Positions 2,698 to 64,000 of a stretch of 64,000 nucleotides of DNA are shown here, one piece after another (position 1 is the first letter of the stretch; each line of letters opens with the position of its first letter). Both the position numbers and the translations under genes were made by a program. Source of the DNA: Cristatella mucedo (taxonomy: Eukaryota; Bryozoa; Phylactolaemata; Cristatellidae); the NCBI GenBank assembly GCA_009760855.2, contig WPIO01000007.1, forward strand, positions 3,600,001 through 3,664,000. Reading direction: 5' to 3'. The notes beneath the pieces are model-generated. The model ran no database searches and had not been told where the DNA came from. It saw nothing but the letters and a program-made list of their open reading frames with translations.

Positions 2698-3134
2698 CGC
2701 TTTTCGGAATCCAACAGTCTACCAATACCTCGTACAAACCTCAAATCCTTTGGAGACCGTGCATTTAGTTCGTACGCTCCCCCAAAGCCTGGAACTCGCT
2801 CCCGACTTGCGTCACGACATACCCTGACTTGACCACATTTAAAAAGAACTTGAAAACACATCTATTTAGGACAGCATTCAGTAGGTCCCTGTGATTTGTC
2901 CTTCATGGGCTTATGCGTGCTGACACTGTGCATGCTGCCACTAACCACACTTGCATGCTGACCCTGTGCATGTCACCCCTAAACATGTTATTCATGTTGT
3001 TTATCAAGCACCATATTACTCACCATTCAATCGCGCTTCCCTTTGCAGCAAATGTAAAGCGCGTAGAAAGAGATTGAGTTATCTGAGGGCGCTTTATCAA
3101 TTGCATTATTATTATTATTATTATTATTATTACT
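2698..3134 (+). mobile_element. LINE-A, 5'-truncated 3' fragment
   Basis: The fragment starts at the codons for RFSESNSL near the RT C-terminus and runs through the 3' UTR to the terminal sequence ending GGGCGCTTTATCAATTGCA and an (ATT)n tract at 3105-3133. Severe 5' truncation is typical of target-primed reverse transcription. Confidence 0.85.
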
Positions 3135-5784: not shown

Positions 5785-7850
5785 TGCTTACAATAATAAT
5801 CACAATGCATTTGATATAGCACCCTCGGAGAACTCGAATCTCTTTTAGGGACTTTAAATTTGCTGCAAAAGGAGCGCGATCGAATGGTTAGTGGTAGCAT
5901 GCTCAATAAACAAAAAGAACAACATGGTTAGGGGCGACATGCTCAGGGTCAGCATGCAAATTTCGTAAGCAGCAGCACGCACAGTGTCAGCACACATAAG
6001 CACATAAAAGACGAATCACTGGAACCCACTAAATGCTGTGATAAATAGGTGCATTTTAGTTTCTTTTTTATCGCGGTCAAGTCAGGAGATGTCACGACGC
6101 TGGTCGAGAGTGAGTTCCAGTGTCTTTATAGGAGCGGTAGAAGGGAGACTGGGCTGAAGTTGCTAAAGTTCTCTTGGTCTATTGTGGCTTTTTTGGGTAG
6201 TGGTCTTACTACAGCCTTTTTGAAAGGTGCTGGGACATGACCTGAAGCTAATGACATATTTTTTCTGTTAGTTATGCATGGCAGCAGCAGATCAATGCAT
6301 CGTAGAAGCAAGACAGTTTGAAGAGGGCCCAGAGGACTAGTTGTCTTCTTTGAATGGGATATGAACTTGAAAATACAGGACGAGCTCACTAGTGACCTCC
6401 TCGAATGAAGACATTGAGGTGTTGCAAGGAATTGAGGGACGGGATCCCAGGGAGTATGCTGCCATCTTAGGGATTATCTCCCTGATCTTGTCTCTCTTGT
6501 TGACAAAGAGGCTAGAGAAGCAATCAGCTAGATCATCACATGGATCACTAGGTAAGGAGCTAATATGGGGAGCGGTTGAGGAAATGGTTGATCGTCGATA
6601 TCAAGATTTTTGGATTTTGCAGTTGTCATTCAACAGTGTTTTTATAGAAGCTAAACTTGGTCTTTGCTAGGATCGATTGGTACGATCTAATGTAAGATAT
6701 CTCCGTCTGTAACTCCACAAAGCCATAAGACTATGTGGGCGTTACGCAGGAGAGTTTTGTATAGCGCACTCACAGCCTAAGCGACTTTCGGTACGCATTC
6801 TGTAACCAACAGACTTCGATCTAAAGTAGTCCTCGCATGCCTGTCGATGGGCAGTCCTGATCTTGTGTATGTTTTTTCAAGCTTGCACGTAGTAGACCTA
6901 GCTAGTTTAGTGTCTCTGGTAAACCGTACGCCGTCTAGGTGAGGGAGCACAGTGCGCTTAGTCAGAGGTGCAAACTCGTCGAGCATGTCAGCTAGTGTCC
7001 TGTTGAGGCAATCTATCAATGATGACAGGTCGGAAGGAGGACTGAGCAGCCGAGGCGAAGCAGATATTCTCGCACGGACAGCATTGATGTCAAGGGTCTT
7101 GAGGTTTCGCGATTTACAGGTGATTTTAGATGAAGAGAAAGAGGGCACACGTTGTAGACTAAATTAGATTTGCATGTGGTCAGATAAGCAGGATTTGGTA
7201 GTAATTGGTGATGACAACGTGCAGTTGTATGAGAAAATTTGGTCGAGTGTGTGACCCTCGATGTGAGTAGGGCCACGCACATGAGCCACAAGAGACGATG
7301 AGTTAGTCAGTGCACGAAATTCAGTGCTAAAGGCGTCAGATGAGTTATCAAAATGAATGTTGAAATCACCCATAATGAGGAAAGATCGATTTCTGGCTCA
7401 CAGAATTGAAATGAGATCAGTGAAATCTGAGATAAAAGAGGACTTTGAACCTGGTAGGCGATAGACTACCGCCACCATCATGAGCTTGTTGTCGGGAAAA
7501 TTCAAGACAATAGGTTCGAAAGACTGCTTCGAGGGTACTTCAAATGGCTTGAAGTCAAATTTCGAGAACGTAATAATAGCAACTCCACCTCCAGTTTTGA
7601 TTAATCTAAGGATTTGAAAGAATGAGAAACCAGCAAGAAAAGTGTCTTTAATTGTCAGTCATTTTACGGATTGTAGCCAAATTTCAGTCAAGGCGAGCAG
7701 GTCGTGACCTTTTTCAGAAGTAAGGTCGCTTATTACTAGGAGTTTATTGCACATCGAGCGAGGATTCCAGAGAAAAGCGTTAAATTGGGTCGCCGGAGTT
7801 AAAACAATATTAGCTGATTTACCAGCCTCATTTGTATGGCGGCCGAAATA
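5785..7850 (-). mobile_element. LINE-A copy with 1.2-kb internal deletion and nested U1
   Basis: Read on the minus strand, this copy has the endonuclease region (WNPRSMCNKLLVISDL, LTEIWLQS, GGGVAII, MGDFNIHFDN, GHTLDQIFS), the linker, and the start of the RT ([20 protein letters not shown]). It then jumps to the 3' UTR and the tail near 5785. Most of the RT palm is missing, including GVPQGS and YADD. The junction at 6114-6120 is a CTGGAAC shared by both flanks in intact copies. A 126-bp U1 repeat with an 8-bp duplication sits at 6691-6816. Stops and frameshifts show it is dead. Confidence 0.85.
6691..6816 (-). repeat. U1 dispersed repeat, copy b, nested in LINE-A with 8-bp TSD
   Basis: Relative to the LINE-A copy at 52.5 kb this segment is an insertion. 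CGATCTAA flanks it at 6683-6690 and 6817-6824, so the boundaries are known. Read on the minus strand it runs from AAGTCTGTTGGTTACAG to ACGGAGATATCTTACA, and its 5' end is shorter than in other copies. Confidence 0.8.
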
Positions 7851-7990: not shown

Positions 7991-8559
7991 CCAAACGGTT
8001 GGTGGTAGTCGTACGCTCAGTCCGAAGGCGTTGACCTTGGCGGTAAATTTAGGCGTACGGCGGGAGGACAGTTTCGTCATCTGCGTACTTTCTGAAGTCA
8101 TTAGATGCCGTCCTGAAATTCACTTCGAAAAGCCAGCGCACCGGGCGAATGGAGGCACAGCGGCAAGTACGAGCGGCCGCTGGGCGCTCGCAACGGATGA
8201 CCCGAGGTGAAAAGGGTAAAAAGAGAACGCGAGTGGTCGTCTGTTCAGGTCAATGATCCTATTGTTCGGCATCGATGAGTCCTATTGTTCGGCATCGATT
8301 GAGTAGCCTTCTGTCCGACGACGCAACACCGGGACGGGTCGGGTCGTCGGGCTGTGGGCTCGCATTTGCCGCATACGCTCTATTCTGTTTGCCGCATACG
8401 TTTCGGGGCAGGCTTGAGAAGGTCGATGTACCTATACACACTGTGCGTCGAGTCAACTAGCAGGTCGTAGCAGCCGGGCCAACGTCAAACTGCGTGGGTG
8501 AGGCGAGTCGTCTTAACTGATGCTATATTAGCTCTTCACAGTCTCACAAATATTTGAGT
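7991..8559. other. unassigned spacer
   Basis: No supported gene or repeat. Around 8255-8300 the phrase CCTATTGTTCGGCATCGATG occurs twice in near-tandem. Confidence 0.3.
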
Positions 8560-8722
8560 TCTTTGAAGCGTTTCGCGAGGCCTCGACGTTCGACCTTCGA
8601 CCTCGACGTTGGAGCCAGCCAGCACGGCTTCTCGAGAATGCTCCCAAACTGAAGCTAGCACGAAGCGGCGCTGATTTGCACGCTTCATTTACAGCTTGCG
8701 TAAAGCGCCGACGAAGAGACTT

Positions 8723-8808
<86 letters not shown>
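8723..8808 (+). repeat. (CT)n microsatellite
   Basis: About 43 uninterrupted CT units. Confidence 0.95.
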
Positions 8809-8811
<3 letters not shown>

Positions 8812-9919
8812 AGCGCTATACAAATGTACTACTGCTATTATTACTAGAGCGTTCGCACGACTTCGTCGCGAAGACGGGGCGCGCGCCCGCGCTCCGGCGC
8901 GTGCAGTTTTTGCGAACCAATGGGAAAGCAGCTACTGGCTGCTCAGAGATTTTACAAGCGGCCGATTCGATCATCTGCGCTCGGCGAGCCGCCCGCGCGC
9001 GAACGCCCTCTGCAGTTGCGACGCCGCACATTGTCGACTCGGAAAGCTGGCCTAGTGCCCTTTCTTTCCTCCGATTTTCCCGCGATGGCCGCCTGCCGGA
9101 CGTCCGCCGCGCGAAGATCCTAGCGATTCGATTGGCTCGAGCGAGTCCGGCGCGGATTCGATCTGCCCCGCAGCGTGCCGGCCGCCCGCGGCGCCGCCAA
9201 GCCTCGCAGAGCTGCCGCGGCTAGCGCTCGTCGCCTAGGTCGGCAGAGGGGCCGCCGGGGCGGCGGCGGCGGCCATTTGGTAGGAAGACGAGCGAGTGGA
9301 CCAGACCGGGGCGTCGCCGTCGGGCCGAGCCGTCAGCGTTCGGCAGCCGCGGCGTCAAGGTGCACATGCCTACCGGCTAGCGCCGTGTGTCACAGCAGCA
9401 CTTGTCAGCTTTGTAGGCTAGGCGAGCCTTCGGGCGGTGCCATCTGGCTGCGAGCGAGCGAATTAAGCCAATTATTGGGGAACCTCGCGGTCGCAGCCGT
9501 GCCAATGAGCGGGAACCGGACGAAGGTCGCGAGCTAATGGAATTAGTAGGAGCGGCGGTGGCGGCGCGTCGAGCTGCTGTCGCGGTTGCGGCGCTAACCG
9601 GCGACCGCCACTCGGGAGTGCGACCGGAAGGGGAGCGATAGTCCGCAGGTGGCTATCGACGCGCGCGCGCCCGCCCGCGCGCGCCCGCAAGTCGCGGCGA
9701 TAAAGATCGGAGCGAGCGAGGCGAAGCGGCGACGAACAATTGCGGCGTCCGTCCGCGAGGCCCGCGCGAGCCGGCGCCCCGCTCTAAAATGGGCGGTGCT
9801 TCACACTTTTCCCGAAACCCTTTCCCGGCCGGATGGGGCGACAGAGTGCAGCGGTAGAGCTCGCGCCGGTCGGGCGCGTCGGCGGCGGAGGCGCGGTCTG
9901 CGGCCGGACGGATTCGCTT

Positions 9920-9943
9920 CGGCCGGCCGGCCGGCCGGCCGGC
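9920..9943 (+). repeat. (CGGC)6 tandem repeat
   Basis: Six perfect CGGC units, self-complementary on both strands. Confidence 0.85.
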
Positions 9944-10169
9944 AGCAGTCGGCCCGTGCGACGGATACGTCGACGTACGTCCCACCCACCACGTCCTGGC
10001 GGAACTGCGGCTCCGGCGAACTGGGCCACTTCGCCCGTAGGAAGAAGAGCGACTCTTGCGGCAGGCGCGCGCGCACGGAGCGTCAGCTGCACGAACGCGC
10101 CGCTTCGGCGGCTCCTGCCTGCACTGCTGACATCCGTTGGCCGCAAACGCCGCCGCGCACGGAGCGCCC

Positions 10170-10206
10170 GCTGCGCCAGTGCGTCCTAGCGACGCACTGG
10201 CGCAGC
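10170..10206. repeat. perfect 16-bp inverted repeat (hairpin)
   Basis: The arms GCTGCGCCAGTGCGTC at 10170-10185 and their exact complement at 10191-10206 are separated by CTAGC. No target duplication was seen, so it is listed as a structural repeat rather than a transposon. Confidence 0.8.
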
Positions 10207-10361
10207 TGGCGCCACGGAGCTGCGGCCGACAGGGTGGGGTAGGCGCGGCAGAAATGCGCGACGGCATGCCAACAGTAGTATATAGAGTGCGGCAGCGATG
10301 CGCGATCCCCGTAAATCGATACACAGGCACCGCGTTCATAGCGTAGAGCGGTCCATTAGAC

Positions 10362-10546
10362 CAGCGGTTCTCAACCTATGGGTAGCGACCCTTTTGGGAG
10401 TCGAATGACCCTTTCACAGGGGTCGCCTAAGACCATCGGTAAACGCGTATTTCCACTTGTACACAATAATTTTAGGGTTGGGGGTCGCCACAGCACGAGG
10501 AACTGTGTTAAAAGGTCGCGAGCATTAGGAAGGTTGAGAACCTCTG
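10362..10546 (+). mobile_element. SPIN-like non-autonomous hAT element
   Basis: The left end reads CAGCGGTTCTCAACC and the right end complements CAGAGGTTCTCAACC (14 of 15 match). The perfect 8-bp CATTAGAC duplication at 10354-10361 and 10547-10554 is the hAT hallmark. Internal phrases such as GACCCTTTCACAGGGGTCGC then CTAAGACCATCGG, and TAGGGTTGGGGGTCGCC, match what I recall of SPIN non-autonomous elements. SPIN is the hAT family known for horizontal transfer among tetrapods and some invertebrates, including a triatomine bug and a pond snail. There is no coding capacity; its transposase would come from elsewhere. The family name comes from memory; the TIR and duplication are read directly. 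Confidence 0.88.
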
Positions 10547-10921
10547 CATTAGACAGCCACAGATAGCTACGAGTGTACTGCACCGACCTCGTACGACTCA
10601 TTTCGAAATTGCGAAGCACGTCTGACTATAGATTGTATGAGCTGGGCTGTGCATGTCGCCTAACCGTAGATTTGTAAATAGCCAGTTCCTAATTAATATA
10701 CTTCGGAGACCGGGAATACAGTCAGCCCCCGACTTACGACGGTTCGACTTAAGAATTTCGGAGGTACAAGCTCACGCAAAAAATTGAAATTCCAAATATA
10801 CCCAAGAAGACTTTCAAAATTCGTACTGGTCAGTAGTTTGACACTGCCGCAAAAAGTATGGTGGAAATGCCGTCTGAAAGCTCTGTATTGTGGGTACTGA
10901 GGGCTATCTCTGAATTATTCG

Positions 10922-11036
10922 TTTAAGGTGCTCGCCCCGACCAAGGTCTGGCAGATGTCGTGGGCTCGAGCCCCGTAGCATATATGAAGCACCTGAAAAG
11001 AGATTAAGTCCTCTTAAGACGATATACAAATCAATA
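10922..11036 (+). mobile_element. SINE-A copy 1 (tRNA-derived), nested
   Basis: The head has TTTAAGGTGCTCGCC, followed by a B-box-like GGGCTCGAGCCCC. The tail reads GAAGCACCTGAAAAGAGATT, then AAGTCCTCTTAAGACGATA. Its 5' end is shortened, with the A box partly lost. Confidence 0.7.
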
Positions 11037-11093
11037 ATATATATATATCGAATATATATATATATATATCGAATATATATATATATATTCTCG
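11037..11093 (+). repeat. (TA)n tracts
   Basis: Three TA runs separated by TCGA, following the SINE tail. Confidence 0.85.
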
Positions 11094-11247
11094 AATTACG
11101 AAAAATTGACTTACGACGGGTTTTCCGATCTCTATCTATTTCGTAAGTCGGGGCTGACCGTAATCACTTAGGCTGCCCTAGTCGAGCTGATAAAGACTTC
11201 CGACAGTTCCATATGCATAGTAAAACATGCTTTTAAACTTGTATACA

Positions 11248-16672: not shown

Positions 16673-16926
16673 CGACAATAATGAAATTCGCTGCCCAAAC
16701 CAGGTGATGCGCCGAGCCGAGGAGTCGCTGACAAGCCACCCGCCTGCCATTGAGACAGACAGACAGGGTGGCAGCAAACCAAGGATGTTTAAACAAAACA
16801 TGAGCTGAGCTCCTCGAATCCTAAAGATGCTGCCGCCCTATGGGAGACTACGTTAGCAGACACCAGGCCAGCACAGAAGTAATAGAAATGCTAGCTAAGG
16901 ACCGTCGTAAGTCTGCCCTCAAGCAG
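16673..16926. other. unassigned spacer
   Basis: Nothing recognisable. Confidence 0.3.
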
Positions 16927-17940
16927 GTCGAATTCTCCCAACTCCCTTGCTGCATGCGTTGATGACATCCGCACATGGATGGCAGCAGGCTTTCTTAAAT
17001 TAAATGATGATAAGACCAACTTACTACTAGTTATGGGAAAAATAAGTGCGATTCAGACGTTGGAAAGGCTAGTGCTCAAAATCGGCCTTGCCAGCATATC
17101 TCCAATTGAATCTGCACGAAACCTAGGTGTCATGTTCCGAAGTGACCTTTCATTACACGACCACATCAGCTCCACAGTCAAGTCTGCCTACTTTCAGCTG
17201 CATAGCATTGCTAAAATTCTGGCTTGTTTAGACAGGGATACCACATCAAAATTGGTCCATGGATTGTTGACATCCCGTCTTGACTTCTGTAACTCACGTT
17301 TTCTGGTCTACCGGCCTGTGTACTCGGGCGCTTACAGCTGGTGCAAAACTCTGCAGCTAGGCTTGTCTGTCATGAGCATCGCAGTTGCCAAATCACACCA
17401 CTTCTCGCCGACCTATACTGGCTCCCAGTCAAGCAACGCATCGACTTCAAGATTGTGTCACTCCTTTTAGGTTCCATCATTCTTCGGCTCCAGCCTACCT
17501 ATCAGATCTACTGTTCCACCAGGCTAAGCATCGTACCACCCGCTTTTTGGAATCTGTAGCACGTGCAAACCTCAAATCCTTTGAAGACCGTGCCTTCGGT
17601 TCGTATGCTCCGAAAGCCTGGAACTTACTCCCGACTTGCGTCACGACATCGCCTGATTTGTCCACATTTAAAAAGAAGCTAAAAACGTATCTATTTATGA
17701 CAGCATTTAGTATGTTCTTGTTATTCGTCCTTTATGTGCTTATGCGTGATGACACTGTGCATACTGCCACTAACCGTACTTGCATGCCGACCCTGTGCAT
17801 GTTACCCCTAACCATGTTATTGATGTTTTTATTCAGCATACTACCCCTAAATATTCGATCGAGCTTCCTTTGCATCAAATGTAAAGTGCGTAGAAAGAGA
17901 TTGAGTTCTCTGCTATATCACGTGTATTATTGCTAGTATT
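16927..17940 (+). mobile_element. LINE-A, 5'-truncated copy
   Basis: The copy begins within the RT after the YADD motif, at the codons equivalent to SLAACIDDIRSWMAA. It runs through LKLNDDKTNLL, ARNLGVMF, SSTVKSAYFQLHSIAKI and FGSYAPKAWNLLP to the 3' UTR and a degraded tail. Frameshifts break it near 17300-17470. It is more diverged than the copies at 29, 51 and 62 kb. Confidence 0.88.
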
Positions 17941-18094
17941 GTTATGAGTGACTCATCCAAAGGAAACACTCTGGTCCGCTATACAAGGCTAGCGAAGGCA
18001 ACAGTGATTTCAGTTAAGTGCTAGAACGCAGTTCGTGCCTGGCACGATCGCTGAAAGTAGTAGCTGAAACGACTCTGACGTCTCTTAGAAATCT

Positions 18095-27153: not shown

Positions 27154-27393
27154 CTAATTGGCATCTCGAACTGTCGTATTGACTCGGCTGGGAGGAAACG
27201 GGGTGGGCGCCGTCGACGTGGCATAAGGCTCCACGTCAATGAGCTTCACTGAGAACGAGGCAAAATATTCTGCGGCAAAGTTGAGAACGTCTTCGGGCTT
27301 TCGCAGTAGCAGGAACTGCATGAAGTCACTTAGCAGCGCTTTCAGCTCCGGATGGTGTCTTACGTACAGGGCATGGTCATCCTTCAGCTCATC
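27154..27393 (-). CDS. CATIP: CATIP terminal coding exon with RIIa-like end
   Basis: This exon holds 79 codons and a TAG stop. The acceptor is TTATTGCTTTTAG. The stretch HHPELKALLSDFMQFLLL followed by RKPEDVLNFAAEYFASF resembles the RIIa dimerisation/docking fold seen in cilium and sperm-tail proteins, here at the C-terminus. The last 30 or so residues are Pro/Thr-rich and look poorly conserved. No clear polyadenylation signal could be assigned below the stop. Confidence 0.85.
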   Translation of the reverse strand, partial: DELKDDHALYVRHHPELKALLSDFMQFLLLRKPEDVLNFAAEYFASFSVKLIDVEPYATSTAPTPFPPSRVNTTVRDAN

Positions 27394-28847: not shown

Positions 28848-29088
28848 CCGTCGAGCTCTTAAATCCGTAGTTTGTCAAGATCACGAGCTTACTCACCGTG
28901 TTTGCGATAGAAGTGTCACGGCCCGCTATGATTAGCCAGCCTGAAGTTGCTTAGCCGACTAGCGAGTAGCAAGCCAGAGGAGGCATATACCGATGGCTTG
29001 CACAACAGAGACAATATGCTTCGATGAACCTATCTGCTGCAACGAGCGCCTAGGCTTCGGTGTTTCTCCATGCCTATGTTAGTATAGC

Positions 29089-30845
29089 AAGTCCACTGGA
29101 CCCTATTCCCACTGTCCTGCTCCTACGTTGCATTGATCTGCTGCTGCCATGCATAACCAACATCATTAATATGTCATTAGCCTCAGGTCAGGTCCCAGCA
29201 CCTTTCAAAAAAGCTGTAGTCAGGCCACTTCTCAAGAAAGCGACACTAGACCAAGAGAACTTAAGCAACTACCGCCCAGTCTCGCTTCTACCATTCCTAT
29301 CAAAGACACTGGAACGGGTCGTGGCAGACCAGCTGAACTCGTATATCGAAACCTCACACCTTGCTAGTAAGTTCCAGTCTGGCTTTAGAGCTAATCACTC
29401 CACAGAGTCAGCATTGCTTCGGGTATACAACGACCTACTTAGGAATGCAGACATGGGTAGAGTGTCTCCTTGTTTTGCTCGATCTTTCGGCAGCTTTTGA
29501 TACCATCGATCACAAAGTACTTCTAGAGCGCCTCTCATCTCGCCTGGGCATCACTGGCACTGCTCTGCAGTGGTTCAGGTCCTATCTCAGTGGGAGACTC
29601 CAGAGTGTTGACGTGAATGGACAAAGATCATCTGAAGTACCTCTAAAATATGGAGTACCTCAGGGCTCTGTGCTAGGTCCGGTCCTTTTCACCGTTTATA
29701 CTCTCCCTCTCGCTGATGTGATTGCCAAGCACAATCTAGGCTTTCACTTCTATGCGGATGACACTCAGTTGTACCTTTGCTTTGATCCCTCCCAGCCTTC
29801 GAGCACCTCAAATTCTCTCAACTCACTTGCTGCATGCATTGATGACATCCGATCATGGATGGCAGCAAATTTTCTAAAACTAAACGATGATAAAACTAAC
29901 TTACTAGTTATGGGCAAACCTAGTGTTATTCAGAAATTGGAAAGGCTGACTTTCAAAATTGGCTCTGCCAGCATATCTCCAGTTGCATCAGCTCGAAATC
30001 TAGGTGTCATTTTCCAAAGCGACCTCTCGTTAGACGACCACATCAGCTCCACAGTCAAATCAGCCTATTTTCAGCTTCATAACATTGCTAAAATTAGGGC
30101 TTGTTTAGATAAGGATACCACGTCCAAGTTGGTCCATGCATTCGTGACATCTCGTCTCGACTTCTGCAACTCACTGCTTACTGGCCTACCAGCATGTGCG
30201 ATCGGGCGATTGCAGCTGGTGCAAAACTCTGCAGCTAGGCTTGTCTGTCGTGAGCGTCGCAGTTGCCACATTACTCCACTTCTCCCCGACCTGCACTGGT
30301 TACCAGTCAAGCAACGGATTGATTTCAAGGTTTTGTCGCTCACTTTTAGGTCTCTTCATTCTATGGCTCCAGCCTATCTTTCAGATATACTACCCCATCA
30401 GGCAAAGCATCGTACCACTCGCTTTTCGGAATCCAACAGTCTAGAAATACCTCGTACAAACCTTAAATCCTTTGGAGACCGTGCATTCAGCTCGTATGCT
30501 CCCACAGCCTGGAACTCCCTCCCGACCTGCATCAGAACATCCCCTGACCTGACCACATTTAAAAGAAACTTAAAAACATACCTATTTAGGACAGCATTTA
30601 GTGGGTCCTTGTGATTCGTCCTCGATGTGCTTATGCGTGCTGACACTGTTCATGCTGCCACTAACCACATTTGCATGCTGACCCAGTGCATGTAACCCCT
30701 AACCATGTTATTCATTTTGTTTGTTTTTCAAGCATGATTTTACTTACTATTCTATTGCGTATCACTTTGCAGCAAATGTAAAGCGCCTAGAAAGAGATTA
30801 AGTTCTCTGAGGGCGCTTTATCAAGTGCAATATTATTATTAATAT
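29089..30845 (+). mobile_element. LINE-A copy with complete RT palm, 5'-truncated
   Basis: It starts within the RT at [20 protein letters not shown]. The frame shows [76 protein letters not shown] and the catalytic GFHFYADDTQLYLC, and continues to the terminal FKRNLKTYLFRTAF. A 2-bp deletion near 29468 shifts the frame, so two frames (29060-29500, 29361-30614) must be read together. The 3' UTR ends GGGCGCTTTATCAAGTGCAA then (ATT)n. It sits in the last CATIP intron, in the opposite orientation to the gene. It is well preserved and therefore recent. Confidence 0.92.
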
Positions 30846-31959: not shown

Positions 31960-32048
31960 CTTCCGGTCAAGAAATTTGGAGAACAGCTGGACATCGTCTT
32001 GCCAGTCAAGGGGAACCTTTGAAAACGTTGGTTTTGGAGGTTCCTCTT
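31960..32048 (-). CDS. CATIP: CATIP coding exon 'g' with GC donor
   Basis: This 89-bp exon completes a Glu codon and adds 29 codons, EEPPKPTFSKVPLDWQDDVQ then LFSKFLDRK. The acceptor is strong (CTTCCGTTGCAG). The donor reads AAG|GCAAGT, the canonical context of GC-AG introns; no GT in frame is available. FLDRK joins directly to DELKDDHALY of the last exon. Confidence 0.85.
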
Positions 32049-33289
32049 CTGCAACGGAAGGCGACAGTGTGTTCGAGGTAGCGCATAGCTTTTGGTCGGG
32101 CTGCAATCAGTGAGTCTGTCGCGAGAGCTTTGGCACCACAAAATACGAGATGCACTGCCGTCAGACTACCTAGGGCAAGTGGCACACTACGGTCCGGCTA
32201 ACAAAAACCCGGGCTGCCTAGCTGTTAGTTAAAATCGCCTCAGTCGGCCGTAACCAGTGTAGGGCGTGGTCCGGCTTCGAGGCATCTAGCAAAAACCAAT
32301 GGGTAGCCGAGCTTAATTAGAGCTGCGGGACACCAAGTCCTACGTTTGATGCATTCTAGGTTCGCCCTCGTCGGAGCCTCAACGGAATGGGCTGCACGTC
32401 TCGGGCCGGCAGGTTTTATTATACTCTATATAACGGAAGCCTCAAGCCGATCGCTCTGGCAGTGCACATCGAAAGCAAGGAAACTGGGAAAATCGACGCT
32501 GTCTAATCTTTTAAAAACTTCAATGCAGCCCAGCACCCGGGCACAACTGTTCGCCGGATCCTACGCCTCAGGTTTAGTGATAACGTAGCCAATATTTGCC
32601 ACGACTCAAATTGCCAGGCCATCACATTCGCCCGAACGTTTGGGCTAAGCGCGTATATTTTCTCCACGAGACTTTCTCTGAGAGGCGGCGCTATGCCTAT
32701 CTAGAATGATAAACAGTATTCCTCTTCGGCGTGCTGATTTCAATGCAGTGCTTCAAAAAAGGTATTCTTACTTTCTGAAGCACTTATACCTTTTGATCTA
32801 TCACTGGGGTAAAACTTGTAGCGAACCACTTTGAAGCCTGGCAGACCTGCATTGCATCACCTGCTGCTGCTTACGATTAACCTCTTATTTGACCTGTCTA
32901 CTATGTCACCTGGAGCTGTTGTTTCACCTGGTAGCTATTGTTAGAGGGCAAATATCAAGCCCCTAGCGGGCATCGAACCCGGAGCGGGAGACATTTCCCA
33001 CGTTGCTGACAGTGCGATGCTGAACTTGACATTAGGATCGCTCTGGCGGTAAATCATATTCCACCGTAGAGTTTAAAGCTAGTGCGTAAGAAAAAAAGAT
33101 TAATGCGGGTACAACAACCGCCGGGGGAATGTAGCACGGTCAGTGCTCAAGACAAGAAATGAATAAAAGGCTGCGCATGATCGGCTGAAGAGGTTGAACC
33201 CTGGCTTCTGACGTCGAAAGTGCATGACTTAGCCACTCGCTAAGCGAATGTCGCTAATGATAAAAAGCGAATAAGAATTCGTTTATCCG
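32049..33289. other. CATIP intron with two minus-strand tRNA-like phrases
   Basis: At about 32955-33030 and 33180-33250 the minus strand carries tRNA-like B boxes (CCGGGTTCGATGCCC and CAGGGTTCAACCTC) and, in the second, GAGTGGCTAAGTCATGC like an A box. No complete cloverleaf was convincing. They may be heads of old SINEs. Confidence 0.35.
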
Positions 33290-38496: not shown

Positions 38497-38573
38497 CTGT
38501 GATGAGTGGCTCTGGAACTGTAGTTATCCTCATTGTCACCGGCGATCCAACTTGTACACGGCTCGTAAGACGG
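38497..38573 (-). CDS. CATIP: CATIP coding exon 'f'
   Basis: This 77-bp exon supplies one base closing a Gly codon, then 25 codons RLTSRVQVGSPVTMRI...PLIT, then one base. The acceptor is TTTTTTCTTACAATTCAG. The donor ACAG|GTTTGT is weak at position +3 but is the only choice that keeps phase. The last base joins AA of the next exon to give Glu (PLITEEEPPKP). Confidence 0.85.
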
Positions 38574-38746
38574 CTGAATTGTAAGAAAAAATGCTGGACC
38601 AATGCAAGACTGCTTCATGCACAATTTCCAGGATTTGCAATTGTATAGTGTCAATGGCCTAGCGAGGTAGATCGCATTTTGTTGAGGCTATATCAGGTTG
38701 ACACAAAACTTATCATTCGTTTACCAGAGCTCTCATAATAACGTAC

Positions 38747-38871
38747 CCGAACTGATCAAAGTAAGATTGCCAAGTCGTGGGCAGGTCGTTGGGAGAGTGG
38801 ATCACCCTCTCAATGCCGGATACAAGAATGAATATATCATCAATTCCTTGACTTCGTTCCGCAAGTGGCTT
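38747..38871 (-). CDS. CATIP: CATIP coding exon 'e'
   Basis: This 125-bp exon gives 41 codons plus two bases: KPLAERSQGIDDIFILVSG, then IERVIHSPNDLPTTWQSYF, then DQF. A good polypyrimidine acceptor (TTTGCTTTCTGTAG) precedes it and the donor is GG|GTACGT. The GIERVIHS...TTWQSYF pattern matches my recollection of CATIP. It joins in phase 2 to the exon 173 bp downstream, completing a Gly codon. Confidence 0.85.
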
Positions 38872-42702: not shown

Positions 42703-42806
42703 GTATGTGGTAGCACATAGGTTAGCATCGGCATCAAACGAAATCAGCTGACAGTCATCCGGCACACCTTTCTTTACAAGCAGCCTCAGCAGGAGGAGGT
42801 TGGATC
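42703..42806 (-). CDS. CATIP: CATIP coding exon 'd'
   Basis: This 104-bp exon supplies two bases of a Gly codon followed by 34 codons, SNLLLLRLLVKKGVPDDCQL through LCATTY. The donor is TAC|GTAAGT. The acceptor is GGTTAATGCTAG; an open frame continues upstream of it, but only this boundary matches the phase of the preceding exon. The leucine-rich core SNLLLLRLL is typical of the family. Confidence 0.85.
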
Positions 42807-45353: not shown

Positions 45354-45530
45354 GGTGAGCCGTGATGGCACACTAGGTAAGGCGGTTGCTTTCACGACCT
45401 CGGTCCCGAGGTCGTGGGTTCGATTCCTGCAGTGGGCGATTCTATATCGCCACTGCAAGCGGTGGTGACAGCCGTAAAGGCTCTTCTGTCGCTATACAAA
45501 AAGACGCTGTTTAATCAGCTAGGAATTATA
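45354..45530 (+). mobile_element. SINE-B copy 2 (tRNA-derived)
   Basis: The copy is complete: GGTGAGCCGTGATGGCACAC, then GTCGTGGGTTCGATTCCTGC (B box), the CACTGCAAGCGGTGGTGACA body, and CTGTTTAATCAGCTAGGAAT at the end followed by ATAAT-rich DNA. Confidence 0.92.
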
Positions 45531-46850: not shown

Positions 46851-46941
46851 CTTGCGCCACCTAGGTGTGCCGATTGGGTGGCTTTGTGCGGCTCTTGTTT
46901 CGTAGGGGCGGCTCATTTGCGTAATCGAAACTTTGAAGTAC

Positions 46942-47002
46942 CTTCGGATATGAAACCCTTCATGTTCTCTTTTGGAAATCCCGTAACGGTTCTCTGTGCT
47001 TG
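46942..47002 (-). CDS. CATIP: CATIP coding exon 'c'
   Basis: This 61-bp exon encodes QAQRTVTGFPKENMKGFISE plus the first base of a Gly codon. The acceptor is TTTTGTTGTAG; the donor is GAAG|GTACTT. It lies 159 bp from the previous exon. The split Gly is completed by the next exon to give FISEGSNLLLLRLL, a strong phase check on both boundaries. Confidence 0.8.
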
Positions 47003-47161: not shown

Positions 47162-47248
47162 CTCTCCTTGAGTTACCACTCTGGTTACAACATACTCGTT
47201 TCCTTGCATGACGATAAACGTCTTCTTATCAAGGGGATGGTTCTCCAG
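47162..47248 (-). CDS. CATIP: CATIP coding exon 'b'
   Basis: This 87-bp, 29-codon exon starts and ends in phase 0. It encodes LENHPLDKKTF...VVTRVVTQGE. The acceptor is a TTTTTTAG tract and the donor is GAG|GTAAGT. It follows directly on HEYVK of the preceding exon, so the joined protein reads HEYVKLENHPLDKKT. The intron separating them is 8.7 kb and carries two SINE-B copies, LINE-A pieces and a Tigger-like element. Confidence 0.85.
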
Positions 47249-47671
47249 CTAAAAAATTTGTTTAATAGCATTAGTCATGCATTAATAAGCCTGAGATGTC
47301 AAATACAATCCAACGACCAACGGTGCAGAAAAATAGTAAATAAACTATCCGACGTTTAGCGGCTAAAATAGAAAATAGTTGGTAAATATAACGGGGTTTG
47401 GCAGAAAAGTATCACGGGAATAGCCAGAAGGCGCTACTGAGCCGCAGAACTTTAATGCCATCACGAACCTATGCGCCTGGCAGCATACTACATCAGCCTC
47501 AGCTAAAAATGGCTGGTCCGGCAGGAAGACGGTTCAGCTTTCCTTTCCTTAAAAGATTCTTCCCTTAAAATAAGTCTACAAGTGTATTGACTGCCACTCG
47601 GCTAAAATTCTTCCACCGTCTCGCGTTAGGTACGCTGATTTGCAGGAATGACATGAAAACGCATCTGTCTT

Positions 47672-48003
47672 ATAATAATAGTAGTATAATAACAGTGCAC
47701 TTGATAAAACGCCCTCAGAGAACTCAATCTCTTTCTAGGTGCTTTACATTTGCTCCAAAGGGAAACGCGATTGAATGGTGAGTAATATCATGCTTGATAA
47801 ACAACATGAATAACATGATTAGGGGTGGCATGCACAGGGTCAGCATGCAAGTGTGGTTAGTGGCAGCATGCACAGTGTCAGCACGCATAAGCACATCAAG
47901 GACGAATCGCAGAGACCCACTTAATACCGTCCTAAATAGATGTGTTTTTAGGTTCTTTTTAAATGTGGTCAAGTCAGGGGAAGTTCTGACGCAAGCCGGG
48001 ACT
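47672..48003 (-). mobile_element. LINE-A 3' fragment, minus
   Basis: An AAT-rich start, the complement of the LINE-A terminus (GATAAAACGCCCTCAGAGAA), the whole 3' UTR and the last codons (TFKKNLKTHLFRTVLS) are present. The RT itself is missing through 5' truncation. Confidence 0.88.
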
Positions 48004-48300
48004 TGAAGGCAACTTTACTCAACAGCACACCTATCCGACCTCATTGCTCCTCCAGTGTGCTCTCGAGCCATCTTCTCCCCAGTATTTTGTCATCTCGCAC
48101 CTCCTAGCATTAAATTGAAATCTTCTGCTGATAAAATCTTCAGTGAGTATTCACCGAAAGTCTTAAACTTGCTTCTCGCTACGATCACTATCTGCGATAA
48201 TTTGCATTTATGTCTTAGCTAAAGACTCACATGTTCTCGTCAGCTTTCCCTTTGCCCACTAAATCAGACTTTTTCGTTCCTGTGTGTTTTTCACACTAAC
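48004..48300 (+). pseudogene. LINE-B C-terminal relic, plus strand
   Basis: The plus frame reads HLSDLIAPP, then KSSADKIFSEYSPKVLNLLL, matching the LINE-B phrases SDLIAPLLPF and KSFVNRVFISYAAKVWNSL at 28.1-28.3 kb. It abuts a LINE-A fragment of opposite orientation. Confidence 0.6.
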
Positions 48301-49128: not shown

Positions 49129-49348
49129 ACCTTTACTTTAGATCCTTGAGTAACTTTCAAGCAGAGTATAGAAAACCCTTAGCCCTCAAGAGCAAGTCGT
49201 AAGCTAAGCTAACAACCACTGATTAACCCTTCCCTCAAAGCCTTCGTACAGTAGTCTATACGCGAAATTCTGGTTATCTCTCTGCTTCCAAGGAGGGTTG
49301 AGGACGGCTAAAGAGGCATGTTAGCAGCAGATAAATAAATAAATAAAT

Positions 49349-49517
49349 CCTAGCTGATTAAACAGCCTCTTTTGTATAGCGACAGAAGAGCCTTTACGGC
49401 TATCACCACCGCTTGCAGTGGCGATAAAGGATCGCCCCACCGCAGGAATCGAACCCACGACCTCGGGACCGAGGCCGTGAAAGCAACTGCCTTACCTAGT
49501 GTGCCATCACGGCTCAC
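49349..49517 (-). mobile_element. SINE-B copy 4 (tRNA-derived)
   Basis: The minus strand carries the full SINE-B head GTGAGCCGTGATGGCACACT, B box GTGGGTTCGATTCCTGCGGT and body. AAATAAATAAAT precedes it on the plus strand (its tail). It forms a head-to-tail pair with the next copy. Confidence 0.92.
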
Positions 49518-49690
49518 CAAATTCTAGCTGCTTAAACAGCCTCTTTTTGTATAGCGACAGAAGAGCCTTGACGGCTATCACCACCGCTCGCAATGGCGAT
49601 AAAGGATCGCCCACCGCAGGAATCGAACCCACGACCTCGGGACCGAGGTCATGAAAGCAACCGCCTTACCTAGTGTGCCATCCGTTAGTC
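49518..49690 (-). mobile_element. SINE-B copy 5, tandem partner of copy 4
   Basis: A second full-length SINE-B in the same orientation, joined to copy 4 with almost no spacer and without its own long A/T tail. The very start of its head is altered (ACTAACGGATGGCACACTAG). Confidence 0.9.
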
Positions 49691-51429: not shown

Positions 51430-54400
51430 AATGTGGTTGTTAAGATTCATGAACTATGCATTAACAAAAGAAAAGCACCCTGTAGCCGCCGCGGTGGCCG
51501 GAACCGCCAGCTAAGATGCCGCTCGTTGGGCAGGAACTGCGAGCTGAGTACCCGCTCGTTTGGTATTCCTAGCATTGTCTCGAACCGCTCAGCACGCTCC
51601 CCCACATGCATCACTGTAAATCTCTCTAACTTAGTGGTCATCAGGCCTGTTGTAACTCCATCGGCCAGACTTAACGCTTGCCTTTGGAATCCTCGCTCAA
51701 TGTGCAATAAACCTCTAGTAATAAGCGACCTTATTTCTGAAAATGGTATCGACCTGCTCGCCCTAACAGAAACTTGGCTGAAATCGATCAATCAAAACTG
51801 GAGGTGGAGTTGCTATTATCGTGCGCTCGAAATTCAACTTCAAGCCATTTGCGGTACCCTCGAAGCAGTCTTTTGAATCAATTGTCTTGGTCTCACCCGA
51901 AAACAAGCTACCGATAGTGACAGTAGTCTATCGCCCACCAGGTACCAAATCCTCCTTTATCTCAGATTTCTCCGATCTCATTTCGATTCTGTGTGCAAGA
52001 AATCGATCCTTCCTCGTTATGGGTGATTTCAACGTTCACTTTGATAACTTATCTGACGCTTTCAGCGCCGAATTTCGTGCATTGACTGACTCATTGTCTC
52101 TTGTGGCTCATGTGCATGGCCCTACCCACATCAAGGGTCACACACTCGACCAGATTTTCTCATGCAACTGCACTTTGTCATCACATATTATTCCCAAATC
52201 CTGCTTATCTGACCACATGCAGATCTCATTCAAACTACAGTGTGTACCCACATCCTCTTCTAAAATAACCTGTGAATCGCGAAACCTCAAGACCCTTGAC
52301 ATCGATGCTGTCCGTGCGAGAATATCTACTTCACCTCTGCTGCTCAGTCCTCCCTCCGATCTGTCATCATTGGTAGATAGCTACAACACGACACTAGCTG
52401 ACACGCTCGACGAGTTTGCACCTTTGACAAAGCGCACTGTGCGCCCCCGCCCAGACGGCCTATGGTTTACCACAGACATTAAACTAGCAAAGTCTACTAA
52501 ACGAAAGATATCTGGACTAACTGTCCATCGACAGGCATATGAAGACTACTGTAGGTCGTACCAATCGATCCTGGCAAAGGCCAAGTCTAGCTTCAATAGA
52601 AACATTGTTGAATCACAGATGCACAATCCAAAAATGCTGATGTCAACAATAAACCATCTCCTCAACCGTTCCCGGATTAGCTCCTTACCTGATATTCCTT
52701 GTGATGATCTAGCCGATCGCTTCTCTCGATTCTTTGTGCAGAAAATAGACAAGATCAGGGAATCCATCCCTGCGATGACAACCTCCCCACTAGAATGCTG
52801 TTCCTCGGTTCCTGGCTGCACCTCAATGTCTGCATTTAAGCAGGTCACTAGTGATCTAGTCCTAAAGTTCGTATCTCAATCAAAGAAGACAACAAGTCCT
52901 CTGGACCCTGTTCCCACTGTCCTGCTCCTACGTTGCATTGATCTGCTGCTGCCGTGCATAACTTACATCATTAATATGTCATTAGCCCCAGGTCATGTCC
53001 CAGCACCTTTCAAAAAAGCTGTAGTCAGGCCACTTCTCAAGAAAGCCACACTAGACCAAGAGAACTTTAGCAACTACCGCCCAGTCTCCCTTCTACCATT
53101 CCTGTCAAAGACACTGGAACGGGTCGTGGCAGACCAGCTGAACTCATATATCGAAACCTCACACCTTGCAAGTAAGTTCCAGTCTGGCTGTAGAGCTAAT
53201 CACTCCACAGAGTCAGCATTGCTTAGGGTATACAGCGACCTACTTAGGAATGCAGACATGGGTAGAGTGTCTCTGCTTGTTTTGCTCGATCTTTCGGCAG
53301 CTTTTGATACCATCGATCACAAAGTTCTTCTAGAGTGCCTCTCATCCCGTCTGGGCATCACTGGCATTGCTCTGCAGTGGTTCAGGTCCTATCTCAGTGG
53401 GAGACTCCAGAGTATTGACGTGAATGGACAGAGATCATCTGAAGTACCTCTGAAATATGGAGTACCTCAGGGCTCCGTGCTAGGTCCGGTTCTTTTCACG
53501 GTTTATACTCCCCCAAATTTTCTAAAACTAAACGATGATAAAACTAACTTACTAGTTATGGGCAAACCCAGTGTGATTCAGAGATTGGAAAGGCGGACTC
53601 TCAAAATTGGCTCTGCCAGCATATCTCCTGTTGAATCAGCTCAAAATCTAGGTGTCATATTCCAAAGCGACCTCTCGTTAAACGACCATATCAGCTCCAC
53701 AGTCAAATTGCCTATTTTCAGCTTCATAACATTGCTAAAATTCGGGCCCTTTTAGAGAAGGATACTACGTCAGAGTTGGTCCATGCATTCGTGACATCCC
53801 GTCTCGACTTCTGCAACTCACTGCTTACTGCCAAACCAGCATGTGCCATCAGGCGATTGCAGCTGGTGCAAAATTCCGCAGCTAGGCTAGTCTGTCGTGA
53901 ACGTTGCAGTTGCCACATTACTGCACTTCTCGCCGACCTGCACTGGCTACCAGTCAAGCAACGGATTGACTTCAAGGTTTTGTCGCTCACTTTTAGGTCC
54001 CTTCATTCTATGGCTCCAGCCTATCTGTCAGATATACTACCCCATCAGGCCAAGCATCGTACTATCCGCTTTTCGGAATCCAGTAGTCTAGAAATACGTC
54101 GTACAAACCTTAAATCCTTTGGAGACCGTGCATTTAGTTCGTATGCTCCCAAAGCCTGGAACTCCCTCCCGACCTGAGTCAGAACATCCCCTGACCTGAC
54201 CACATTTAAAAGGGACTTAAAAACACTTATTTAGGACAGTATTTAGTGGGTCCCTGTGATTCGTCCTTGATGAGCTTATGCGTGCTGACACTGTGCATGC
54301 TGCCACTAACCACATTTGCATGCTGACCCTGTGCATGGCACCCCTAACCATATTATTCATTTTGTTTGTTTTTCAAGCATGATTTTACTTACCATTCAAT

Positions 54401-54490
54401 TGCATTTCCCTTTGCAGCAAATGTAAAGCACCTAGAAAGAGATTAAGTTCTCTGAGGGCGCTTTATCAAGTGCATTATTATTATTATTTA
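51430..54490 (+). mobile_element. LINE-A, longest copy (endonuclease and RT, YADD deleted)
   Basis: The copy starts with a frame (51433-51876) containing NACLWNPRSMCNKPLVISDL and ALTETWL. About 65 bp are missing near 51797, shifting to the main frame (51821-53755, 644 codons). That frame encodes the rest of the endonuclease (VVYRPPG, VMGDFNVHFDN, GHTLDQIFS, CLSDHMQI), then the linker and [54 protein letters not shown]. At about 53513, 159 bp are missing in frame, removing the FYADD catalytic box. A 1-bp loss near 53709 and a stop near 54176 follow. The 3' UTR ends in GGGCGCTTTATCAAGTGCAT and (ATT)n. It lies in a CATIP intron, opposite in orientation. Confidence 0.92.
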
Positions 54491-55633: not shown

Positions 55634-55917
55634 TACATTGGTTTCTTACACAACCTTAGCCTGCATTATTAAAGCAAGTAAAACCTTTTACTGTGTTTTG
55701 GGGAAGATAAGAATAATAGCTCATAAAAGAACAATACTAATAATATTATCCAAATCTGAACTCATTAATTAATCAGTTCCGTAAATGGTTGGTATGTTAA
55801 TGGGTAGGATCCAATTTTATATGCAACGATCAATCGTAGATAAGGTGCAATCCAGCAGTGTGCACATTGTTGATTCATCACAGGCAGACCTACATCTGTG
55901 ACAGGATTTTCACTCAC

Positions 55918-56159
55918 CTTCACATATTCGTGATGCTGCTGTTCGATTGTCTCTAGAGTTTTCGAAATGTACGCTATTATGGACGTTCCGCAAGGCACTC
56001 CATCAATAGAGCCGTGACTGTTAGCATGTACCAGGAAACAATCTTGGTCCTGTCGCTTTGCTAACGAAATCGTCACGCTGAACTCGCCTAACTCCTTGCC
56101 TGTGTCTGAGACAGTTACCAATTTGTCGTCAAATAATATATTCTGAAAGTCGCTTTCGC
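55918..56159 (-). CDS. CATIP: CATIP coding exon 'a' (most 5' exon found)
   Basis: The exon encodes 80 residues starting at ESDFQNILFDDKLVTVSD and ending LETIEQQHHEYVK. Its donor is near consensus (AAG|GTGAGT). An acceptor-like TTTGCTTTAG precedes it and leaves a split first codon, so at least one upstream coding exon is expected. Alternatively the in-frame ATG whose first base is 56190 could start translation (MGYLHIHFALG), with no splicing. I prefer the splice because the homologous part of the family has residues before this point. The CGTS and EQQHHEYVK stretches are the strongest family marks. Confidence 0.85.
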
Positions 56160-56774
56160 CTAAAGCAAAATGGATATGCAAGTAACCCATACGTTACTAA
56201 TAAAACTGTCAACCATCGTGACCAAAATGAGACTCATTGTAAGAAATATACGCAGTTTCCTTAGCCACTGTCTTGTTTAAGTAAATCCTGTGATAGACAG
56301 AGTTAATTGCCACAAGACCGAACTGTAACTATCTACCTTTTACCCTTACGATTGACCCTATTGAAGTAACGATAGTAAGAGGAAACAAGGCACACATCCT
56401 GAGGTCGAACACGCCCTTTTCAATAGTTAGATTTACTAGCAAACGGTGGTGCCGCTAAGCTCTGAATCTGGGCATTGATAAATCCGAACTTATGCTGGCA
56501 AAGATTTGCTTATGCAACACCTATGGTAGGTGGTATGTTTGGCAATTATTATATAATCAAAAATATCATTCATGTATATAGCGCCCTGAGAGTGCCAACT
56601 TAATCTAATGACATCTGCTAGACCGTTTTATTAGTATTGCATATCTTGAAATCAAGAAAAGAGATGAGAAAAACGTTACATCTAGAGTCGTGATACGACT
56701 TTTAAAGACACTAAAAGCTCAGTGATGGGACAGATATCGCTTGAATATGAATATCCATTGGAAAGCCTGGGTTA
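56160..56774. other. upstream of CATIP exon a; tail stub at 56576-56620
   Basis: No exon for the missing N-terminus was recognised. A minus-oriented LINE/SINE tail stub reads ATATAGCGCCCTGAGAGTGC. Confidence 0.35.
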
Positions 56775-63885: not shown

Positions 63886-64000
63886 CAGGCATTTAACGGC
63901 GGCCATGACGTACATCAAAAACTCTGCGGACTTAACCTCAAACCAGCTCCAATGCCAACGCTGAGTCTGGAATCCCAACTGCCACCCTATCTCAGGGACC
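63886..64000. other. window end, unassigned
   Basis: The last 115 bp after the LINE-A tail has no recognised feature. Confidence 0.3.

What the first reader, a model, noticed from the sequence alone, without database searches (positions are those of the whole stretch)
10354..10554. SPIN-like hAT element with perfect 8-bp duplication
The sequence shows 15-bp inverted ends (one mismatch), an exact CATTAGAC duplication and interior phrases matching my memory of SPIN non-autonomous elements. SPIN is a well-known case of recent horizontal transfer among tetrapods, with copies reported in a triatomine bug and a pond snail. Finding it beside invertebrate-type LINEs makes this genome a possible further host. 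Whether the transfer is new cannot be judged here.
Basis: partly seen in the sequence, partly recalled or inferred. Interest (0 to 1): 0.8.

Follow-up and report, generated by a model that had tools for sequence, protein, structure and literature searches.

The report
SPIN transposon copies in bryozoan-like genome
A short "jumping gene" of the SPIN family, best known for moving between unrelated back-boned animals, is present in roughly a thousand copies in an invertebrate genome whose closest named relative is a bryozoan (moss animal), which widens the known reach of this cross-species DNA traffic.

Summary
Bases 10362-10546 are a 185-bp non-autonomous hAT element with 16-bp inverted ends (one mismatch) and an exact CATTAGAC duplication. 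The 572-Mb genome holds 1,140 matches to one internal 20-mer, against 2 for the control. One check needs no memory: the only protein hit to the translated element (6 candidates) is a Myotis bat gene model, 23/30 residues; the consensus scores 28/30. Exact duplications fit nnnTAnnn in 11 of 11, the target of the SPIN relative TcBuster (PMC3499496). A 1,123-bp relative has SPIN ends around what looks like a broken transposase end. The host is a lophotrochozoan whose CATIP gene groups with the bryozoan Watersipora (100/98). Near-identical non-coding DNA in such distant animals is best explained by horizontal transfer; donor, date and species are unresolved. This is a new host record for a known family, probably in a further phylum.

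The parts
10354..10361 (.). left target-site duplication CATTAGAC (fits nnnTAnnn)
   Evidence: exact repeat of 10547-10554; TA centre as in TcBuster target sites (PMC3499496 passage)
10362..10377 (+). 5' terminal inverted repeat, 16 bp
   Evidence: 15/16 paired with 10531-10546
10362..10546 (+). SPIN-type non-autonomous hAT element (185 bp); orientation as in the recalled SPIN_NA consensus
   Evidence: multi-copy family; 16/184 differences from the 187-bp genome consensus; consensus 167/171 to recalled SPIN ends
10378..10530 (+). non-coding interior with subterminal repeats of the type GGTCGC / GCGACC and GACCCTTT (inferred transposase-binding sites)
   Evidence: GGTCGC at 10421, 10483, 10514; GCGACC at 10385; GACCCTTT at 10387 and 10407; direct repeats
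10531..10546 (-). 3' terminal inverted repeat, 16 bp
10547..10554 (.). right target-site duplication CATTAGAC
55900..56160 (-). host gene CATIP, N-terminal exon (host marker, not part of the element)
   Evidence: Pfam CATIP_N 3.3e-35; tblastn
47162..47248 (-). CATIP exon (host marker)
   Evidence: tblastn
46934..46996 (-). CATIP exon (host marker, approximate ends)
   Evidence: tblastn
42703..42777 (-). CATIP exon (host marker, approximate 5' end)
   Evidence: tblastn
38722..38871 (-). CATIP exon (host marker, approximate ends)
   Evidence: tblastn
38498..38596 (-). CATIP exon (host marker, approximate ends)
   Evidence: tblastn
31960..32061 (-). CATIP exon (host marker)
   Evidence: tblastn
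27157..27393 (-). CATIP C-terminal exon with RIIa-like domain (host marker)
   Evidence: Pfam RIIa 1.3e-5; tblastn

Best explanation
The feature is one decayed copy of a SPIN-type MITE: a hAT element of the Buster group that lost its coding middle but kept both ends. A transposase made elsewhere by a full-length SPIN bound the 16-bp ends and the GGTCGC-type subterminal repeats, cut the element out, and inserted it with an 8-bp stagger at an nnnTAnnn site, which left CATTAGAC on both sides. SPIN entered this lophotrochozoan (bryozoan-like) lineage by horizontal transfer, amplified in a burst to roughly a thousand copies, and has since decayed. Shown here: anatomy, copy number, star-like divergence of the copies compared, target-site preference, a larger relative with what looks like a transposase remnant, and near-identity to vertebrate-type SPIN. 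Inferred: trans-mobilisation, the binding sites and the horizontal route. Not shown: an intact transposase, donor, direction or date.
For: Ends and duplication. 581+559 matches to an internal 20-mer against 1+1 in the control; 40 scored of 2,052 first-look candidates, all 40 matching at 84-100%, the 100% being the window. Forty-copy consensus; mean divergence 6.0%, pairwise 11.1%, about twice that, so star-like. Duplication exact in 11 of 40 and within one mismatch in 30 of 40, with TA central in 11 of 11 exact ones. Sole protein hit (of 6 candidates) Myotis myotis, E 1.8e-4 for 5.8 billion sequences, 23/30 residues; consensus 28/30. A 1,123-bp relative at C5:384414-385536 with exact CACTAAAT duplication, SPIN 5' end (consensus 1-91) and 3' end (107-187, 90%), and a broken coding stretch between. 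Host CATIP trees.
Against: No SPIN reference sequence could be fetched, so DNA identity rests on recall, tested only indirectly by the bat protein over 30 residues. The 40 copies were the best matches to this copy, hence biased to young ones; nine full or nearly full-length copies taken from the exact 20-mer list are 6.0-18.9% from the consensus, median 9.2%, and only one of the nine shows an exact 8-bp duplication at the ends called there (GGCTATGG). In 10 of the 40 copies the duplication differs by two or more bases. No intact SPIN transposase was found; the remnant has no Pfam hit at E up to 1 and its Buster likeness is recalled. None of 53 hAT loci fetched had SPIN ends within the fetched stretch (30 of 3.2 kb; 20 of 6.2-7.3 kb; 3 of 4.6-5 kb, where two chance-level 12-bp matches, E 0.31, were all). 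Horizontal transfer was not tested by comparing rates of element and host genes.
Confidence: 0.88

Rival explanations
1. An ordinary lophotrochozoan hAT (Buster) family, inherited vertically, that shares only the terminal motif with SPIN.
For: hAT elements with similar ends are common in animals (recalled). A SPIN-like hAT with about 1,000 copies exists in the snail Biomphalaria (PMC5440852, passage), so a lophotrochozoan reservoir is possible.
Against: The match to vertebrate-type SPIN runs through 171 non-coding positions at 97.7% (recalled reference), and 30 residues match in the bat. Neutral DNA would not stay so alike over the lophotrochozoan-vertebrate split (inference).
Confidence: 0.08
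2. Contamination: vertebrate DNA in the assembly.
For: None found beyond the likeness to vertebrate SPIN itself.
Against: Copies lie on many contigs of up to 24.8 Mb. The window copy sits on the same 12.8-Mb contig as a lophotrochozoan CATIP gene, about 17 kb away. Copies have drifted independently.
Confidence: 0.01
3. SPIN came into this lineage not from a tetrapod but from another invertebrate (for example a snail) or from an unsampled common donor, with tetrapods as fellow recipients. This is a variant of the best explanation, not exclusive of it.
For: SPIN-like or related hAT elements are reported in Biomphalaria and Lymnaea (passage in PMC4344730 that speaks of hAT transposons), both lophotrochozoans.
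Against: Nothing here tests direction; no named SPIN sequences could be compared.
Confidence: 0.4

Closest known systems
SPIN_NA (SPACE INVADERS non-autonomous, hAT, Buster group) of tetrapods
   Same: Ends and flanking interior (consensus 167/171 to recalled ends); 8-bp duplication; MITE build
   Different: Host is a lophotrochozoan; consensus starts CAGC where the recall has CAGT, and differs at three further recalled positions; the middle (about 16 bases) was not recalled and so not compared
SPIN_NA_12_RP / SPIN_NA_13_RP of Rhodnius prolixus (named in PMC11614815, passages)
   Same: SPIN in an invertebrate, read as horizontal transfer
SPIN-like hAT of Biomphalaria glabrata, about 1,000 copies (PMC5440852, passage)
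   Same: Lophotrochozoan host, similar copy number
   Different: Mollusc; the one mollusc pairing tested for the present host is rejected by CATIP (Haliotis+Gigantopelta, p 0.0037); sequences not compared
OC1 (OposCharlie1), e.g. in Tasmanian devil, triatomine bug and planaria (PMC3621081, passages)
   Same: hAT MITE of similar size spread between distant animals
   Different: Separate family; not compared by sequence
TcBuster (Tribolium; PMC3499496, passages)
   Same: nnnTAnnn target sites; Buster family shared with SPIN
   Different: Separate family, not compared by sequence

Membership tests
hAT superfamily | 8-bp target-site duplication next to short inverted ends | tested here: met
   Exact in 11 of 40 copies, the window's included, at most one mismatch in 30 of 40; in the later sample 1 exact of 9 at the ends called there and 1 exact in the longer element
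Buster group of hAT | duplications of the form nnnTAnnn | tested here: met
   11 of 11 exact duplications, plus GGCTATGG and CACTAAAT; rule from PMC3499496
SPIN | high nucleotide identity to SPIN consensus over ends and interior | tested here: met
   167/171 to ends recalled before the consensus was built; the reference is recall, not a database
SPIN | same sequence present in a known SPIN host | tested here: met
   Myotis myotis model P0243: 23/30 residues for this copy, 28/30 for the consensus, 29/30 for the recalled SPIN end; Myotis as SPIN host is recalled
SPIN | MITE derived from a longer element with transposase | tested here: inconclusive
   1,123-bp relative with both SPIN ends and a broken coding stretch; remnant not recognised by Pfam
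SPIN | intact or near-intact SPIN transposase in the genome | tested here: inconclusive
   PF05699 and PF14291 searches scored only part of the candidates (150 of 766; 150 of 237), and the 53 loci fetched lacked SPIN ends; the direct search did not complete
SPIN | horizontal transfer: element closer than host genes, patchy distribution | not testable with these tools
   no other animal genome could be searched; inferred from non-coding identity alone

The most novel reading that the evidence does not exclude
SPIN invaded Bryozoa (or its close kin, such as Entoprocta), a phylum of sessile filter feeders, and amplified there to roughly a thousand copies. The SPIN pandemic would then not depend on blood feeding or parasitism, and water-borne routes (shared habitat, viruses, snails or trematodes) would need to be considered.
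Probability: 0.6. Interest if true: 0.68.

Novelty: new member of a known kind. Interest (0 to 1): 0.55.

Why it matters
SPIN is one of the textbook cases of DNA transposons jumping between distant animals, and the route is unknown. For SPIN itself, the invertebrate hosts in the papers seen here are a blood-feeding bug and freshwater snails. A further lophotrochozoan lineage, probably of another phylum, with roughly a thousand copies and a measurable age spread gives an extra point for dating and for testing whether host-parasite contact is needed. The genome is assembled, so the test is a matter of computation.

Tried and rejected
Scans of public viral contigs with three SPIN patterns, of prokaryote contigs with one and of viral contigs with the LINE protein found nothing; these collections are not of animal genomes, so this says little. 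Full-text search for six SPIN oligonucleotides found no paper; an earlier one was swamped by a 10-mer. Pace 2008 and Gilbert 2012 are not held and Gilbert 2010 was not seen; the id tried was not held either and may not be that paper. What I say of them is recalled or second-hand.

The young 640-aa hAT family was considered as the driver of this MITE and rejected: no similarity of the 30 fetched 3.2-kb loci to the MITE consensus. A second hAT family (GTF2IRD2-like by recall; L098/L099, 94.8% alike over 2.7 kb) was rejected for the same reason, apart from a chance-level 12-bp match in each (E 0.31). A tick or mollusc host was my first guess. The best named hit, Haliotis, suggested mollusc, but the trees do not support that.

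Reading the 40 best copies as typical was rejected after sampling by exact 20-mer: they are the younger end of the family.

Full report
What was reported.

The observation. It is there. The element proper is 10362-10546, 185 bp. Its ends pair over 16 positions with one mismatch, and CATTAGAC lies directly on both sides. Searching the window for an exact 8-bp repeat flanking 16-bp inverted ends with at most one mismatch gives this element only; 100 first-order Markov windows give none. Relaxing to four mismatches still gives only this element in the window, and 4 hits in the 100 controls. The window has no second copy. Inside, GGTCGC occurs three times, GCGACC once and GACCCTTT twice, a pattern of subterminal repeats of the kind hAT transposases bind (general knowledge; binding not tested).

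Copy number. A DNA search gave 2,052 first-look candidates, of which 40 were scored; all 40 matched, 84-100% identical, the 100% being the window itself. A pattern count of one internal 20-mer with up to two mismatches gave 581 forward and 559 reverse matches, against 1 and 1 for the pattern read backwards. So there are roughly a thousand copies; more diverged ones, with three or more changes in the 20-mer, are not counted.

Consensus and age. I fetched the 39 other scored copies with flanks and built a majority consensus of 187 bp from all 40: CAGCGGTTCTCAACCTGTGGGTCGCGACCCCTTTGGGGGTCGAACGACCCTTTCACAGGGGTCGCCTAAGACCATCGGAAAACACGCATTTCCACATTTTGCACACAATAATTTTATGGTTGGGGGTCGCCACAACATGAGGAACTGTATTAAAGGGTCGCGGCATTAGGAAGGTTGAGAACCACTG. 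The window copy differs at 16 of 184 positions (8.7%). The 40 copies average 6.0% from the consensus (range 3.2-9.6%; L047 compared over 137 positions only), 5.3% outside CpG and 11.0% at CpG sites. Pairwise divergence averages 11.1%, about twice the distance to the consensus, as expected from a burst. These 40 are biased, being the best matches to one copy. Ten further places, chosen by me from plus-strand rows among the exact 20-mer matches that were listed, gave nine full or nearly full-length copies at 6.0-18.9% (median 9.2%) and one longer element. Typical copies are therefore older than the first 40 suggest. No neutral rate is known for this host, so I give no date.

Target sites. Of the 40 copies, 11 have an exact 8-bp duplication, 19 differ by one base and 10 by two or more; in one of those ten (L047) the 3' end was not recognised. 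All 11 exact ones have T at position 4 and A at position 5. Among the nine copies sampled later only one duplication is exact at the ends called by local alignment (GGCTATGG); it too has the central TA. This is the nnnTAnnn target reported for TcBuster; the same paper places SPIN in the Buster family (PMC3499496, passages).

Is it SPIN? No SPIN record could be fetched. I used two routes. I had already seen the window copy, so its agreement with that copy (82/91 and 73/81) could be biased. But the genome consensus was built only later, and it agrees with the recalled ends at 88/91 and 79/80: where the window copy differs from the recall, the consensus mostly sides with the recall. Second, without any recall, I searched two translated frames of the window copy against 5.8 billion proteins (the tool considers only proteins of 0.55-1.75 times the query's length; 6 candidates shared words). 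One came back with E at most 0.01: an uncharacterised Myotis myotis model, E 1.8e-4, 23 of 30 residues; the second frame does not match it. Myotis bats are classic SPIN hosts (recalled). The consensus matches that bat stretch at 28/30 and the recalled SPIN end at 29/30, which also speaks for the recall.

A longer relative. One sampled place (L101) matched consensus 1-91 and then left it. Fetching what follows (L111) showed the SPIN 3' end (consensus 107-187, 90%) about 950 bp further on. The element is C5:384414-385536, 1,123 bp, with an exact CACTAAAT duplication on both sides. Between the ends is a stretch of coding character ending ...KYRSRLIVEDDLRCALAKTAPRISDLMRNKESQPSP, which looks to me like the C-terminus of a Buster-type transposase. 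That is recall; Pfam gave no hit at E up to 1 and the PDB only an unrelated zinc-finger protein at E 0.53. Its longer 3' region agrees with a longer recalled SPIN 3' end at 111 of 129 positions. This is the expected parent type of the MITE, itself shortened and broken. An intact transposase was not found. PF05699 gave 138 matches among 150 scored of 766 candidates, 55 of them with the same score of 76.8 bits, from a young family; PF14291 gave 46 among 150 scored of 237. None of the 53 loci I fetched carried SPIN ends within the stretch held (30 of 3.2 kb; 20 of 6.2-7.3 kb; 3 of 4.6-5 kb with two chance-level 12-bp matches). The direct search with the remnant did not complete.

The host. The window carries the gene CATIP on the minus strand, eight exons or parts of exons between 27157 and 56160, on the same contig as the element. 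The closest protein is an unnamed one, P0123 (93% over 339 columns); the closest named one in the search list is Haliotis rubra at 73% over a quarter of the query. In trees of 51 and 38 proteins the window groups with P0123 and, next, with the bryozoan Watersipora subatra at 100/99 and 100/98. Beyond that the trees differ: this trio joins four annelid-side rows at 92/81, it does not. Forcing the window next to Haliotis+Gigantopelta is rejected (p 0.0037), next to Capitella+Paralvinella (0.0088), next to Lingula and an unnamed protein (0.024) and next to Owenia (0.040); next to the two nemerteans it is not (0.059). The groups were named after the first tree had been seen, Watersipora has a long branch, it is one gene and one named bryozoan, and entoprocts and phoronids are not among the named rows. 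I take the host as lophotrochozoan with near certainty and bryozoan (or near kin) as likely. A LINE protein in the window has a 95% relative over 56% of the query on a 1.5-kb metagenome contig (P0002), which did not name the animal.

Horizontal transfer. Non-coding DNA that agrees at about 98% between a lophotrochozoan consensus and vertebrate-type SPIN cannot plausibly be inherited from their common ancestor (inference; the vertebrate side is recalled plus 30 bat residues). Direction and donor are open. Published invertebrate hosts that I could read about are Rhodnius (PMC11614815, passages), Biomphalaria glabrata with about 1,000 copies of a hAT of significant identity to SPIN (PMC5440852, passage) and, second-hand and as hAT transposons, Lymnaea stagnalis (PMC4344730, passage). 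A related hAT, OC1, is listed for planaria (PMC3621081, passages). A search for papers holding four of six terms including bryozoan, SPIN and hAT listed 20 of 1,268, all with zero occurrences of bryozoan; 13 papers combine bryozoan, transposable element and genome assembly (listing only). Of these I looked into the one on a bryozoan genome (Flustra, PMC13326412, passages), which holds no word beginning with hAT. Within these searches I found no report of SPIN in Bryozoa; the library lacks most subscription papers.

Verdict. The class is known; the host record is probably new and, if the host is a bryozoan, extends SPIN to a further phylum.

Noticed in passing
window 10719-11160: A second inverted-end element just downstream: CAGTCAGCCCCCGACTTACGACGG... 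with a degenerate match at the other end, TA on both sides, 442 bp; looks Tigger/pogo-like by recall.
   Followed up: partly
G000, e.g. L048-L077: A very young hAT family with an open frame of up to about 640 aa (ZBED1/Ac-like by recall): 55 of 138 PF05699 matches have the identical score of 76.8 bits. No SPIN ends in the 30 fetched loci; probably recently or still active.
   Followed up: partly
L098 929-3634 and L099 1382-4095: Another hAT family (GTF2IRD2-like by recall) with long open frames, two copies 94.8% alike over 2.7 kb.
   Followed up: partly
window about 2700-3130, 16900-17950, 29050-30840, 51780-54490, 62040-63890 (+) and 5870-7660, 47670-48010 (-): Several copies or pieces of one CR1-like LINE (name by recall; RVT_1 and endonuclease domains in the copy at 51782-53752), up to about 96% alike; a 95%-identical relative sits on a 1.5-kb JGI metagenome contig (P0002).
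   Followed up: partly
window 27157-56160 (-): Host gene CATIP spread over about 29 kb, with introns holding several of the LINE pieces.
   Followed up: yes
window 49345-49682 and 45364-45527: A tandem pair of a 174-bp unit with an inverted relative nearby; by eye the unit holds a tRNA-like stretch and may be a SINE, though ARAGORN calls no tRNA in the window.
   Followed up: no
window 8500-10350: GC-rich stretch (63% in the 8-10 kb bin) directly upstream of the SPIN copy, possibly a CpG-island-like promoter of an unidentified gene.
   Followed up: no
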